A DNA stretch of 64,000 nucleotides from a bacterium (GTDB lineage: Bacteria; Elusimicrobiota; Elusimicrobia; UBA1565; UBA9628), in the NCBI GenBank assembly GCA_021782205.1, contig JAJXVH010000002.1, positions 1 to 64,000 on the forward strand, given 5' to 3'. This document shows, one piece after another, positions 56,828 through 63,018 of this stretch. Position 1 is the stretch's first letter. Every line of letters begins with the position of its first letter. The position numbers and the translations under genes were made by a program. The notes below the pieces were generated by a model, which was given only the letters and a program-made list of their open reading frames with translations, did no database searches and had not been told where the DNA came from.

Positions 56828-59425
56828 TCAGCGCGGCGACTGCGACAGACGCCGGGTGCGCGTTTCCTTGACGTAGAACTCGAGGAGGTCGCCGACCTGG
56901 AAGCCGGAGAAGCCGTCGATGCCGATGCCGCACTCCTGGCCCTTCTCCATTTCCTTGACGTCGTCCTTGAAGTGCTTGAGCGTGGTGACCTTGCCTTCGT
57001 GAACCGTCTGGCCGTTGCGCACCACGCGGATCATGCCGCCGCGGGACACCTTGCCGTCGCGGATGGCGGAGCCGGCCACCGAGCCGCCCTTGACGGCGAA
57101 CACCATCTTGACCTCGCCCTTGCCGACGGTCACGTCGACGATCTCCGGCGCGAGCAGTCCCTCGAGCGCGGCCTTCACGTCCTCGATGAGCTCGTAGATG
57201 ATCTCGTAGCGGCGGATCTCCACGCCCTCGTGCGCGGCCACTTCCTCGGCGCGCGCCTCGGCGTCGGCGTGGAACATCAGCACGACCGCGTCGGACGCGG
57301 AGGCCAGAAGGACGTCGGACTCCGAGGCGTTGCCGATGGCGCCGTGGATCACGCGCACGCGGCACTCCGTCGTCGCCATCCCTTCCAGGGAGTCGCGCAG
57401 GGCCTGCAATGAGCCCTGCGTGTCGGCCTTCAGCACGATGTTCAGATCTTTGGCCTTGGAGGAGCCCGTGGTCAGCGCGGAGCGCAGGCCGACCAAAGTC
57501 ATGTGCTTCTGGTGGGCCATCATCTGCTCGCGGTGGATGAGGCGCCGCTTCTCGGCGATGTCGCGCGCGGCCTTCTCGTTCTCGACGACGGTGAACGCGT
57601 CGCCGGCCTGCGGGTTGCCCGTCAGGCCCAGGACTTCCACCGGGGTCGCGGGACCGGCGGCCTCGATGCGGGCGCCGGAATCGTTGACCAGAGCCTTGAT
57701 CTTGCCGTGCGCCAGACCCGCGACGAACGCGTCGCCGCTCTTGAGCGTGCCGGCCTGCACCAGCACCGTCGCCACGGAGCCGCGCTTGGGGTCCATCTTG
57801 GCCTCCAAGACAGTTCCATAAGCCAGGCGGTCAGGATTGGCCTTGAGCTCGAGTATTTCGGCCTGCAGCAGAACGGCTTCCAAAAGCTTGTCCAGGTTGA
57901 GGCGCTTCTTGGCGGAGACATCCACGAACATGGTCTTGCCGCCCCACTCCTCGGCCTGCAGGCCGTGGTTGGCCAGGTCCTGACGGATCTTCTGCGGGTT
58001 GGCGCCGGGCAGATCAATCTTGTTGACCGCGACGACGATGGGCACGCCGGCCGCCTTCGCGTGATCGACGGCCTCCAGCGTCTGCGGCATGATGCCGTCG
58101 GTCGCGGAGACCACGAGGATGACCAGGTCGGTGACCTTGGCACCGCGCGCGCGCATGGCGGTGAAGGCCTCATGACCGGGAGTGTCGAGAAAGACCACCT
58201 CGCCCTTTTCGATCTTCACTTTGTAAGCGCCGATGTGCTGGGTGATGCCGCCGGACTCGCCCTCGGCCACGCGGGAGGAGCGAATCGCGTCGAGCAGGGA
58301 GGTTTTGCCGTGGTCGACGTGGCCCATGATCGTGACGACGGGGGACCGGGACTTGAGCTTGGCGGGGTCTTCCTTCTCGGCCTTGACGACCGCCAACTCT
58401 TCTTCTTTGTACATCGCGACGACTTCCATCTCGTAGCCGAAATCGGAGGCGACGACCTGCGCCGCCTCGGTGTCCAGGCGCTGGTTGATGGTCGCGAAGA
58501 TGCCCAGCGACATCAGCTTCTTGATGACGTCGTTGGTCTTGACCTCCATCTTCTCGGACAGTTCGCGCACGGTGATCATCGACGAGACCTGAATCTTCTT
58601 GAGCGCCGGCTTGGCGCCCGGCTCCGCCGGCTTCTGCGGGGCGGGGGTGGGACGGGACGCGGCCTGCTGAGGCTTGGGGCCGCGATGCTGGGAACCGGGA
58701 CGGAAATTGGCGTGCTGCCCGGGACGCGGCGCGCCGGGGCGAGGAGGAACGAAGGTCGGCGACTTGGTGGTGATCGCGTTCGGACGCAGAATCGTGGGCT
58801 TGGCCGGAGCGCTCGGCGCCGGGGTGCCGGAGACCGGCGGCTTGACCGGTGAAGGCGCGCCGGGAACGGCCGGACGGGGTGTTGCCGCCGGGGCCGCGCC
58901 GGCTGGCGACGCGGGGCGAGGCGCCGGCATGCCGGGAGGCACGGGCGCGCGCACCGGCAGAGCCGGAGCGCCGGGAATGACCGGACGCGGCGCGGGCATG
59001 CCGGCCGAAACCGCAGGCCGCGGCGCGGCGACAGGCGCCGGGGCGGAAGCGGCGGGAGGCGCAACAGGGGCGGGCGTCACGGGCGTCACCGGAGCCGGCG
59101 GCAGCTTCGGCGCGGGCGGCTTGGGCAAGGCCGCGCCCGCGGCCAGTCGCGTGACGGCCGGACCGGCGGCCGGACGGCTCTTCTTAAAAAGAGAGAACGC
59201 GGAAACCAGGTTCGAACTCGGCGGCGCGATGGAGCCTTCTTCCTGCGCCGAGCGCACTTCCGCCGCAGCGGTGACCACGCCTTTGGCGTCCTTCTTCACC
59301 GCCGCCTTCTTGGGCGCGCCCGTCTTCTTGGCCGAAGACTTGGCGTCCTCGCCCTCGTCATTTTTCGCGGCCGGCTTCTTTGTCGTGATCTTTTTTTCCA
59401 TGCTCTCGGGGCCTTCGGAGGTCAT
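56828..59425 (-). CDS. infB: Translation initiation factor IF-2
   Basis: The 865-residue GTPase has a Lys-rich start, a long Pro/Ala-rich linker (about 95-265), an IF2-N domain (about 285-335; [13 protein letters not shown]) and a G domain with [27 protein letters not shown] and SAKK. Two beta-barrel domains and the C-terminal tRNA-binding domain follow. A second ATG at 59401 (MEKKITTKK) has AAGG upstream and could be the real start; neither has a strong site. It follows nusA by 16 bases. Confidence 0.95.
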
Positions 59426-59441
59426 GATAGCATTTTCGCGT

Positions 59442-60722
59442 TCACGCCTGCTCCGGGAGCGTTCCCGCCGCCGCCGCGACCGCGGCCTTCGCGGACGCGA
59501 TGATCTTCAGCGCGGTTTTCTCCCCGATTCCGGCGCGAGCGCTGAGGTCCTCGGGCGCGCTCGACGCGAGAGCCGCCGCGTCGATGATGCCCGCCTTGAC
59601 CAAAGCCTCGACGGTCTTCGGGCCGACGCCTTCCAGATTGGAAAGGCCCGTGTTCGCGCCGGGGGCTTCGGCCGCCGGTTCCGCGGCCTTGCGGCCCAGG
59701 GACTTGACCTCCATCGTCCAGCCCGTGAGCTTCTGCGCCAGGCGCACGTTCTGGCCGTCCTTGCCGATGGCCAGCGCCAACTGCTCCTCGGCGACCAGCA
59801 CCTCCGCGACGCGGTTCTCGGCGTCGGTAATGCGCACCGACGCGACCTTCGCCGGGTTCAGCGCGTTGGCCAAAGCGGCTTCCGCCTCGTCGGCGTAAGG
59901 GATCAGGTCGATGCGCTCGCCGGCGACTTCGTTCATGATCGAGCGGATGCGCGAGCCGCGCAGGCCCACGCACGCGCCGATGGCGTCGACCTTCGGGTCG
60001 TTCGATTTCACGATGACCTTCGCGCGGAAGCCGGGATCGCGCACCAGGTGGACGATCTCCACGGTCCGGTCTCCGATCTCCGGGACCTCCAGTTCCATCA
60101 GGCGCTGCAGAAAACTTTCCGAGGCGCGCGAGAGGACCACGGCCGGGCCGCGCTGGGCGCGGTCGACGCGCAGGATCACCGCGCGCACGTTGCCGCCGAT
60201 GCCGTAGCGTTCGCGGCGGATCTGCTCGCGCAGGGGGAGGATCGCCTCGGTCTTGCCCAGGTCGACGATGATGTTGCGGTCCAGGAAGCGGTGCACCGCG
60301 CCGCTGACGATCTCGCCTTCCTTGGGCTTGTACTCCTCGTAGAGCTTGTCGCGCTCGACCTCGCGCACGCGCTGGGTCAGCAACTGCTTGGCGGTCTGCG
60401 CGGCGATGCGCGCGAAGTCGGCGGCGGGGGCGGCGTAGATGATCTCGTCGCCGATCTGCGCGCCCTTCTTGTACTTCTGCGCGGCCTCGACGCTGAGCTC
60501 CAACTCCGGCTCCGTGACCTTCTCCACGACCTTCTTGGCCACATTCGCGGAGAACGCGCCGCTTTCACGGTCGATCGACGCGCGGATGTCCGCGTCCTTG
60601 CCCACGTGCTTGCGCAAGGACGACACGACCGCGCCTTCGATCATCGTCAGAATTTCCTCGACCGGGATGTTTTTCTCCCGGGCGATCTGTTCCAAAGCCG
60701 CCATCAACTCGGACTTCGCCAT
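59442..60722 (-). CDS. nusA: Transcription termination/antitermination factor NusA
   Basis: The 426-residue protein has the RNA-polymerase-binding N-domain, an S1 domain (GEIVSGAVHRFLDRNIIVDLG), two KH domains (DAIGACVGLRGSRI, LAIGKDGQNVRLA) and a C-terminal helix-hairpin-helix unit (LEGVGPKTVEALVKAG, AGIGEKTALKI). It binds pausing polymerase and influences hairpin terminators. It is therefore a candidate controller of its own operon, whose leader has such a hairpin. Confidence 0.96.
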   Translation of the reverse strand: MAKSELMAALEQIAREKNIPVEEILTMIEGAVVSSLRKHVGKDADIRASIDRESGAFSANVAKKVVEKVTEPELELSVEAAQKYKKGAQIGDEIIYAAPAADFARIAAQTAKQLLTQRVREVERDKLYEEYKPKEGEIVSGAVHRFLDRNIIVDLGKTEAILPLREQIRRERYGIGGNVRAVILRVDRAQRGPAVVLSRASESFLQRLMELEVPEIGDRTVEIVHLVRDPGFRAKVIVKSNDPKVDAIGACVGLRGSRIRSIMNEVAGERIDLIPYADEAEAALANALNPAKVASVRITDAENRVAEVLVAEEQLALAIGKDGQNVRLAQKLTGWTMEVKSLGRKAAEPAAEAPGANTGLSNLEGVGPKTVEALVKAGIIDAAALASSAPEDLSARAGIGEKTALKIIASAKAAVAAAAGTLPEQA

Positions 60723-60725
60723 GAC

Positions 60726-61196
60726 CTAGTCCTCCCCGAAATCGGCTTGCGCGGCGTCGTCGAGACGCACCTCATCGACGTTCGCGCGCGAAAACAGCTT
60801 GAGGTCCGGACCGACCTGCACGGCGACGGCTCCGTCCCTCAAACCCTTGAGTATCCCCGCGAAACGGCGCTGGCCGTTCTCCGCGATCTTGATGCGAACC
60901 TTCACGGGCTTGCCCGCGAAGCGCTCGAAATCCTTTTCCTTCTTGACGACGCGGTCGAGTCCCGGGGAAGAAATTTCCAACACGTAGGATTGCTCGATCG
61001 CGTTCGTGTCGTCCAGCAGCGCGCCGACACGGTCCGAAAAATAGGCGCAGTCGTCCAAGCTGATGCCCTTGGGCTTGTCCAGGAACAGGCGCAAGACCCA
61101 CTGATGGCCCTCGCGCCGCCATTGCAGGTCCACCAGCTCCCCGCCCTCCTGCTCGATGACGGGCGTGATCAGCGTCTCGATTTCTTTGGCGTCCAT
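60726..61196 (-). CDS. rimP: Ribosome maturation factor RimP
   Basis: The 156-residue protein shows the family pattern VDLQWRREGHQWVLRLFLDKPKGISLDDC (with the Asp of the first domain) and LEISSPGLDRVVKKEKDFERF. It acts in 30S assembly. The ATG follows a poly-T/A stretch (TTTTTTTATTGAAAAAAC) with no clear ribosome-binding site, and a terminator-type hairpin ends about 15 bases upstream. It is the first gene of rimP-nusA-infB-rbfA-truB. Confidence 0.95.
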   Translation of the reverse strand: MDAKEIETLITPVIEQEGGELVDLQWRREGHQWVLRLFLDKPKGISLDDCAYFSDRVGALLDDTNAIEQSYVLEISSPGLDRVVKKEKDFERFAGKPVKVRIKIAENGQRRFAGILKGLRDGAVAVQVGPDLKLFSRANVDEVRLDDAAQADFGED

Positions 61197-61202
61197 GTTT
61201 TT

Positions 61203-61240
61203 TCAATAAAAAAAGTGGCTCAAAACGGAAGCCACTTTCA
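61203..61240 (-). terminator. Intrinsic terminator hairpin in the rimP leader (possible attenuator)
   Basis: On the minus strand: AAAGTGGCT, loop TCCGTTTTG, AGCCACTTT, running into a total of seven T. The 9-bp stem plus T tract is a textbook intrinsic terminator. It lies between a perfect -10 box (61273-61278) and the rimP start (61196). It can end proS transcripts and, since it is inside the new leader, also regulate rimP-nusA-infB. Confidence 0.8.
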
Positions 61241-61272
61241 ATGCGCGTCCCCGATCGGAGGCGAACGGCTAC

Positions 61273-61281
61273 ATTATAGCA
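61273..61281 (-). promoter_or_regulatory. Extended consensus -10 promoter of the rimP-nusA-infB operon
   Basis: On the minus strand: TG-C-TATAAT, in the gap just after the proS stop. Transcription should start near 61266, giving a leader of about 70 bases that contains the terminator hairpin. A weak -35 (GTGACT) lies 19 bases upstream. Confidence 0.7.
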
Positions 61282-61299
61282 CGGATTCCGACGCGAAAG

Positions 61300-63018
61300 T
61301 CACGCGCCTGACAGCGCCTGCTTCAGGCGGCTTGCCGCTTCCTCTAGCTTCCACCGCGTCGCGTCGGCGGCGCCCCGGCGCTTGTGCTCGACCGAGCCTT
61401 CGTCGAGCGTGCGCTTGGAGACCACCAGGCGGTGCGGGATGCCCAGCAGGTCGATGTCCTTGAACTTCACGCCGGGCTTGCCGTCACGGTCGTCTTCGAG
61501 CGCGTCCAGGCCCGCGGCGGCCAGAGCCTTGAGCAGGGCGTCGACGGCGGGGCGCACGCGCGCGTCGTCGGCCTCGTCGAGCACCACGACCGCGCAGTCG
61601 AACGGGGAAATCTCCGCGGGCCAGACGATGCCGTCCTTGTCGTGTCCCTGCTCGATGGCGGCGGCCACCACGCGGCTGACGCCGATGCCGTAGCAGCCCA
61701 TGACCATCGTCTGGGGCTTTTGCGCCTTGTCCAAGTATTCCGCCTTCATGGACTTGGAATATTTCGTGCCGAGCTTGAACGTGTGTCCGACCTCGATGCC
61801 TTTATAGAATTCGGTGCGCGAAGCGCACCGAGGGCAGGGGTCCTCGCTGGTCGCCGACCGGAGGTCGGCGAAGCCCTTGAGGCCGGGCAGGTCGCGGGCG
61901 ATGTTGAAGCCGTCGGCGTGCAGTCCATCCTTGTTGGCGCCGGTCACGCCGTTGAGCACCGCGCGCGTCGCGAAGTCGCAGTAGACGGCGACGCCGTCGT
62001 GGCCCTGGGGGCCGCCGAAGCCGACCTTGCAGCCCATGACCTGCTGATACTGCGCCTCGGACGCGCGGTACAGCGCGGGCGAGCCGACGGCGGCGGCCAG
62101 CTTGGCCTCGTGCAGTTCGTGGTCGCCGCGCATGAGCGCGATCACCGGGACCTTGCCGTCGATCATGTACAGCTGGGTCTTGAGGAAATCGGTCGTCGGC
62201 CGTCCCACCAGCGCGGCCACGTCGGCCACGGTGGTCTTGTTCTGCGTGTTGAATTCAGTCAGCGGCTTAAAAGACGCGGCGCTTGGCGCCGCGTACTGAT
62301 CCTTGACCTCGGCGCGCTCGATATTGGCCGCATACTCGCATTTCGTGCAGGAGACGATGGTCTCCTCGCCGGTCTCGGCCAGCACCATGAACTCGTGGGA
62401 GAAGGAGCCGCCGATGGCTCCCGACTGGGCCTCCACAGGCTTGAACTTGAGCCCGCAGCGCTTGAAGACGTTTTTATAGGCGTCATACATGCGCTTGTAG
62501 TAGGCGCTCGCGTCGGCCTCGTCGGCGTGGAACGAATAGGCGTCCTTCATCAGGAACTCGCGCGCGCGCATCACGCCGAAGCGCGGGCGGATCTCGTCGC
62601 GGAACTTGAGGCCGAACTGGTAGAACATCGCCGGCAACTGGCGCCAGGAGCGGATCTCGCGGCGCGCCAGGTCGGTGATCACTTCCTCGGCGGTCGGCGC
62701 GAAGCAGAACTCCGCGTCCTTGCGGTCTTTCAGGCGCAGCAGTTCTTTTCCGTAGACCGGCCAGCGGCCCGTCTCCTCCCACAACTGCTTGGGCTGGATC
62801 ACCGGCAGCCACACTTCCTGGCCGTCGGCCGCGTTCATCTCCTCGCGCACGATCTTCTCGACCTTGCGCAGGACGCGCAGCCCCAGCGGCAGCCAGTCGT
62901 AGATGCCGCTGGCGACCTTGCGGATCATCCCCGCGCGCTGCATGAGCTGGGCGGAGACGTTGTCGGCGTCGCTGGGCGCCTCGCGCAGGGTGGGGATCAA
63001 GGTCTTGGAGTATTTCAT
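61300..63018 (-). CDS. proS: Prolyl-tRNA synthetase (bacterial type with editing domain)
   Basis: The 572-residue class II synthetase has motif 1 (GIYDWLPLGLRVLRKVEKIVREEM), motif 2 (FQ-type FRDEIRPRFGVMRAREFLMKD) and motif 3 (GCYGIGVSRVVAAAIEQ). The insertion between motifs 2 and 3 (about 225-400; VPVIALMRGDHELHEAKL) is the editing domain that clears Ala-tRNA(Pro). The C-terminal anticodon domain is complete. It follows rseP by 24 bases. Confidence 0.96.
   Translation of the reverse strand: MKYSKTLIPTLREAPSDADNVSAQLMQRAGMIRKVASGIYDWLPLGLRVLRKVEKIVREEMNAADGQEVWLPVIQPKQLWEETGRWPVYGKELLRLKDRKDAEFCFAPTAEEVITDLARREIRSWRQLPAMFYQFGLKFRDEIRPRFGVMRAREFLMKDAYSFHADEADASAYYKRMYDAYKNVFKRCGLKFKPVEAQSGAIGGSFSHEFMVLAETGEETIVSCTKCEYAANIERAEVKDQYAAPSAASFKPLTEFNTQNKTTVADVAALVGRPTTDFLKTQLYMIDGKVPVIALMRGDHELHEAKLAAAVGSPALYRASEAQYQQVMGCKVGFGGPQGHDGVAVYCDFATRAVLNGVTGANKDGLHADGFNIARDLPGLKGFADLRSATSEDPCPRCASRTEFYKGIEVGHTFKLGTKYSKSMKAEYLDKAQKPQTMVMGCYGIGVSRVVAAAIEQGHDKDGIVWPAEISPFDCAVVVLDEADDARVRPAVDALLKALAAAGLDALEDDRDGKPGVKFKDIDLLGIPHRLVVSKRTLDEGSVEHKRRGAADATRWKLEEAASRLKQALSGA

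What the first reader, a model, noticed from the sequence alone, without database searches (positions are those of the whole stretch)
61197..61281. Promoter plus terminator leader before rimP-nusA-infB: a likely attenuator
A TGCTATAAT promoter follows proS, and a 9-bp stem with a seven-T tract lies downstream of it but before the rimP start, with only about 15 bases to the ATG. Any transcript from this promoter must pass the terminator. Because the operon encodes NusA, which acts on hairpin pauses and terminators, self-regulation by attenuation is plausible.
Basis: partly seen in the sequence, partly recalled or inferred. Interest (0 to 1): 0.7.

Follow-up and report, generated by a model that had tools for sequence, protein, structure and literature searches.

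The report
Promoter-proximal terminator before rimP-nusA-infB
Right in front of an operon that makes a transcription-termination protein (NusA) sits a start signal followed at once by a stop signal, and this pair is kept across a whole bacterial phylum (Elusimicrobiota), which strongly suggests that the operon controls its own expression; the same kind of switch is already known in other bacteria.

Summary
On the minus strand an extended -10 (TGCTATAAT, 61281-61273) is followed by a perfect 9-bp hairpin (61238-61212) with a T7 tract, 15 nt before the rimP ATG (61196). It is the only perfect stem of at least 8 bp with T6 in the 64-kb window; 60 shuffles gave none. The window belongs to Elusimicrobiota.

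The layout promoter, hairpin plus T-run, rimP recurs in nearly every genus of the phylum examined. In the window's order the hairpin sequence itself is conserved: AAAGTGGCnGnnGT...GCCACTTTTTTTATTG, including the unpaired loop. An exact-pattern scan of about 85,000 genomes gave 31 matches: all 22 in Elusimicrobiota lie 37-60 nt upstream of rimP, and the 9 in other phyla have no rimP nearby. The upstream gene varies, so this is not a proS terminator.

It is best read as a transcription attenuator of rimP-nusA-infB. The "rimP-leader" is a published, widespread attenuator, and NusA autoregulation by it is reported for B. subtilis. This is therefore a new sequence variant of a known kind. It lacks the GGGc...gCCC signature, has no Rfam match, and its hairpin often starts almost at +1, leaving no room for an antiterminator. 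That NusA is the regulator is inferred, not shown.

The parts
61273..61281 (-). extended -10 promoter element TGC TATAAT
   Evidence: sequence; TG plus a TATAAT-like hexamer in the same place in nearly all of the 17 genus members, several also with TTGACA; at least 5/6 match in 85 of 101 phylum leaders against 35.5 in shuffles
61242..61266 (-). short leader with a weak upstream hairpin (hairpin I, predicted -7.8 kcal/mol). In many genus members the equivalent hairpin is strong and followed by a pyrimidine run, i.e. a tandem terminator
   Evidence: RNAalifold support on the alignment is weak
61211..61239 (-). terminator hairpin GAAAGTGGCTT ccgtttt GAGCCACTTTT with conserved core GTGGC...GCCAC
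   Evidence: covariation and slide controls
61208..61214 (-). T7 tract of the terminator, followed by the conserved ATTG
60726..61196 (-). rimP
   Evidence: no Shine-Dalgarno-like sequence upstream
59442..60722 (-). nusA, the proposed regulator
   Evidence: TIGR01953 above cut-off
56828..59425 (-). infB, same operon
   Evidence: TIGR00487 above cut-off
61300..63018 (-). proS, upstream gene; its stop codon lies about 20 nt before the -10
   Evidence: not conserved as the neighbour in relatives

Best explanation
This is a transcription attenuator of the rimP-nusA-infB operon. RNA polymerase starts at an extended -10 promoter just after proS. After about 55 nt it meets an intrinsic terminator whose U-tract ends 11 nt before the rimP start codon, so neither transcripts from this promoter nor read-through from proS can reach rimP without passing it. 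A fraction of polymerases terminates and yields a short RNA; the rest read through and make RimP, NusA and IF2. The most likely control is feedback: abundant NusA stimulates hairpin termination and lowers its own synthesis, and scarce NusA lets polymerase through. Shown here: the parts, their order, their phylum-wide conservation, and the sequence constraint on stem and loop. Inferred: that termination is partial, that it is regulated, and that NusA is the regulator.
For: Relatives: 44 of 51 rimP upstream regions, from genus to class, carry G(T/C)GGC-loop-GCC(A/G)C plus a T-rich tract; loop positions 2, 5 and 6 are G, G, T in 35, 35 and 30 of 44. Specificity: of 31 exact matches in about 85,000 genomes, all 22 Elusimicrobiota matches lie 37-60 nt upstream of rimP and the 9 others have no rimP. 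It is single copy in its own genome. Covariation: 96.1% of cells paired against 35-69% when slid, 4 pairs with changes on both sides, 4 invariant pairs. Promoter: a -10 of at least 5/6 upstream of the hairpin in 85 of 101 leaders against a shuffled mean of 35.5 and maximum of 49; 6/6 in 41 against a mean of 5.4. Where the GTGGC sequence is lost the layout stays, with other stems such as GCGACTTG...CAAGTCGC or GGCGGC...GCCGTC. The upstream gene is proS, rseP or neither. Precedents: rimP-leader and NusA repression of its operon (PMC2965389); B. subtilis NusA attenuation (PMC12288461).
Against: There are no RNA data from any member, so neither start nor termination is measured. No -35 is recognisable in this genome. 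No antiterminator competes: the best fold without the hairpin is -8.5 against -21.4 kcal/mol, so RNA refolding alone would not regulate it. NusA specificity rests on precedent and on exclusion. A strong terminator in front of genes expected to be essential needs substantial read-through, which was not measured.
Confidence: 0.72

Rival explanations
1. Same attenuator, other sensor: a protein other than NusA (RimP, IF2, a ribosomal protein or a phylum-specific factor) recognises the conserved loop and stem and promotes or blocks termination.
For: The loop nGnnGT is conserved although unpaired, and four stem pairs never vary, more than hairpin stability needs. Naville and Gautheret mention RimP feedback as conceivable.
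Against: NusA already acts on hairpins in the RNA exit channel and is encoded in the operon; NusA control is the published precedent.
Confidence: 0.14
2. Fixed brake: the terminator has a constant efficiency and only sets the basal level of the operon relative to the promoter, with no regulation.
For: No antiterminator, leader peptide or riboswitch is visible.
Against: A fixed level could be set more simply by a weaker promoter; keeping promoter plus terminator across a phylum, with loop sequence conserved, is hard to explain without a regulator.
Confidence: 0.1
3. The hairpin and U-run mainly act in the mRNA: a 5' stem-loop protecting the transcript, with the U-rich stretch serving ribosome binding in place of a Shine-Dalgarno sequence.
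For: The hairpin starts close to +1 in many relatives and most rimP genes in these genomes lack a Shine-Dalgarno sequence.
Against: The T-run abuts the stem in nearly all members, which is the terminator signature; protection would not need it.
Confidence: 0.07
4. It is simply the proS terminator; rimP is fed by read-through and the TATAAT is incidental.
For: In this window the hairpin lies about 60 nt after the proS stop.
Against: The hairpin follows rimP, not proS: other genes such as rseP lie upstream in many relatives, and the -10 lies before the hairpin across the phylum.
Confidence: 0.02

Closest known systems
rimP-leader (Naville and Gautheret 2010, PMC2965389; Rfam RF01770 'rimP')
   Same: A terminator in the 5' UTR of rimP-nusA-infB, 4-130 nt before the gene, sequence-conserved stem, no visible antiterminator, NusA proposed as regulator. 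A tandem upstream hairpin occurs in some members, as in many members of this genus.
   Different: The stem core is GTGGC...GCCAC instead of GGGc...gCCC, with a conserved loop. RF01770 finds no match in this genome at E up to 10. The hairpin often starts almost at the transcription start.
NusA-autoregulated leader of the B. subtilis nusA operon (Mondal et al. 2016, as summarised in PMC12288461)
   Same: Same operon, intrinsic terminator in the 5' leader; NusA-stimulated termination is reported there.
   Different: The B. subtilis leader is about 180 nt; here the RNA up to the end of the U-tract is about 60 nt, and probably 30-40 nt in many relatives. No experiment exists for Elusimicrobiota in the papers searched.
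E. coli metY-rimP-nusA leader
   Same: Terminator-like GGGCTTTAGGCCCTTTTTTTATG upstream of rimP.
   Different: tRNA gene metY at the head of the operon, longer leader with tandem terminators and the GGGC/GCCC core.

Membership tests
rimP-leader (Naville and Gautheret 2010 / RF01770) | located in the 5' UTR of the rimP-nusA-infB operon | tested here: met
rimP-leader (Naville and Gautheret 2010 / RF01770) | Rho-independent terminator: hairpin followed by a T-stretch, 4-130 nt before the start codon | tested here: met
rimP-leader (Naville and Gautheret 2010 / RF01770) | GGGc...gCCC motif in the terminator stem | tested here: not met
   stem core is GTGGC...GCCAC here and in the order
rimP-leader (Naville and Gautheret 2010 / RF01770) | match to the Rfam model RF01770 | tested here: not met
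   no match in the window's genome at E up to 10; no gathering-threshold hit at this locus
NusA-autoregulated attenuator | operon encodes NusA downstream of the terminator, with no room for a promoter between hairpin and first gene | tested here: met
   11 nt between T-tract and ATG; NusA TIGR01953
NusA-autoregulated attenuator | termination in the leader increases with NusA | not testable with these tools
   needs RNA or in vitro transcription
riboswitch, T-box or leader-peptide attenuator | a sensing domain or an alternative antiterminator structure upstream of the terminator | tested here: not met
   no Rfam hit; best alternative fold -8.5 against -21.4 kcal/mol; in 30 of 66 leaders outside the genus the stem begins within about 5 nt of the predicted +1

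The most novel reading that the evidence does not exclude
In Elusimicrobiota the hairpin is essentially the whole leader: transcription starts a few nucleotides before (or at) a sequence-conserved terminator whose loop nGnnGT is recognised by NusA or another factor. Termination would then be decided at about +30 to +40, when sigma is being exchanged for NusA, making a minimal NusA-sensing attenuator and a direct read-out of free NusA at promoter escape.
Probability: 0.2. Interest if true: 0.7.

Novelty: new variant of a known kind. Interest (0 to 1): 0.45.

Why it matters
It extends attenuation of the operon that makes a transcription-termination factor to a phylum with almost no experimental genetics. 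It gives a compact, sequence-defined element that can be tested in vitro. Its minimal size and conserved loop would help to settle whether NusA reads RNA sequence or only hairpin shape when it stimulates termination.

Tried and rejected
The proS-terminator reading was rejected because the hairpin follows rimP and not proS. A riboswitch or other known RNA family was rejected for lack of any Rfam match. An antiterminator was sought and not found: no competing structure within 12 kcal/mol. A genus-specific upstream hairpin was examined; it looks real in several genomes, but the alignment gives only three supported pairs, so it is reported as a lead. A lenient terminator census of the window skipped odd hairpin lengths and missed this very hairpin, so it was not used. 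The automatic hairpin picker chose the upstream hairpin in some genus members and gave doubtful picks in nine leaders, which were left out of the distance statistics. The -10 control used mononucleotide shuffles and treats related genomes as independent, so its margin is indicative.

Full report
What is there. On the minus strand, in transcription order: proS stop, TGC TATAAT (61281-61273), a 33-nt spacer, the hairpin GAAAGTGGCTT-ccgtttt-GAGCCACTTTT (61239-61211; 9 Watson-Crick pairs at 61238-61212), a T7 tract, ATTGAAAAAAC and the rimP ATG at 61196. Downstream are nusA, infB, rbfA (read by eye) and truB; upstream are proS and rseP. The hairpin is the only perfect stem of at least 8 bp followed by T6 in 64 kb, and 60 dinucleotide shuffles contained none. 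No -35 is recognisable in this genome.

Where it comes from. Near relatives of the window's genome are contigs labelled Elusimicrobia. RimP is found in 192 of 199 genomes of the phylum.

Conservation. Upstream regions of rimP were read from 51 loci, from same genus to same class. In 44 the core G(T/C)GGC...GCC(A/G)C followed by a T-rich tract is present. The consensus is AAAGTGGCTGCCGT..GAGCCACTTTTTTTATTG, with loop positions 2, 5 and 6 being G, G and T in 35, 35 and 30 of 44. Pairing holds in 96.1% of cells against 35-69% for slid controls. Four pairs have changes on both sides and four never vary. Invariant stem pairs plus a conserved loop mean that sequence as well as shape is under constraint.

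Specificity. The pattern GTGGCNNNNGN{2,6}GCCACTTTTTTTATT occurs exactly in 31 stretches among about 85,000 genomes. All 22 in Elusimicrobiota (one is labelled only 'bacterium' but is a genus member) have rimP 37-60 nt downstream; the 9 in Bacteroidota, Clostridia, Acinetobacter and others have none. The window's own genome has one copy.

Across the phylum. A relaxed pattern occurs in 51 of 199 genomes. Outside one family (f12) nearly all fetched copies are again upstream of rimP. In f12 the matches lie elsewhere, but its rimP has a different hairpin in the same place, GCGACTTG...CAAGTCGC. Of 102 leaders, about 92 have a convincing hairpin with a T-rich tail. A -10-like hexamer of at least 5/6 precedes it in 85 of 101, against a mean of 35.5 in shuffles, and a perfect TATAAT in 41 against 5.4. 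So the layout outlives the hairpin sequence.

Distance. Outside the genus the stem starts a median of 14.5 nt after the -10, and within 11 nt in 30 of 66 leaders. With a usual start about 7 nt after the -10, the hairpin then begins within about 5 nt of +1. That leaves no room for an antiterminator, leader peptide or sensor domain. In the window's leader the best fold without the terminator is -8.5 kcal/mol against -21.4 with it.

Neighbouring gene. proS, rseP or other sequence lies upstream in different relatives, so the hairpin belongs to rimP.

Comparison. The rimP-leader was described in 2010 as the most ubiquitous predicted attenuator, with a GGGc...gCCC stem and NusA as the preferred regulator (PMC2965389). 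B. subtilis NusA is reported to autoregulate through NusA-stimulated termination in its leader (PMC12288461). E. coli has GGGCTTTAGGCCCTTTTTTTATG before rimP. In the few other-phylum genomes read here, Acinetobacter has GGGGCGAATTTCGCCCTTTTTTATTGG upstream of rimP, and a Saprospiraceae and a Ruminococcus genome have a TATAAT- or TATACT-like element followed by a hairpin and T's before rimP. The window's element lacks the GGGc...gCCC motif and does not match RF01770. It works like a rimP-leader; by the published motif it is a variant rather than a member.

Verdict. NusA as the sensor is probable by precedent, but untested.

Noticed in passing
window 61242-61266 and loci L001-L017: In the window's genus a second hairpin precedes the terminator and starts 6-7 nt after the -10. 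In many members it is strong and followed by CTTTCTT or T-runs (a tandem terminator); in the window's own genome it is weak.
   Followed up: partly
window 61197-61207 (minus strand): rimP has no Shine-Dalgarno-like sequence here or in most relatives, while nusA in the same operon has GGGGAGGA; the terminator occupies the place where one would sit.
   Followed up: partly
L030, L031: In genus g9 the T-tract runs directly into the rimP ATG (GCCACTTTTTTTTATG), so terminator and start codon nearly overlap.
   Followed up: no
L187, L188, L185: Promoter-like or hairpin plus T-run arrangements also precede rimP in Acinetobacter, a Saprospiraceae and a Ruminococcus genome; Acinetobacter shares the TTTTTTATTGG tail.
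   Followed up: partly
window 58674-61463 (+): A 929-aa open frame on the plus strand runs antisense through infB, nusA and rimP; most likely a by-product of high G+C content.
   Followed up: no
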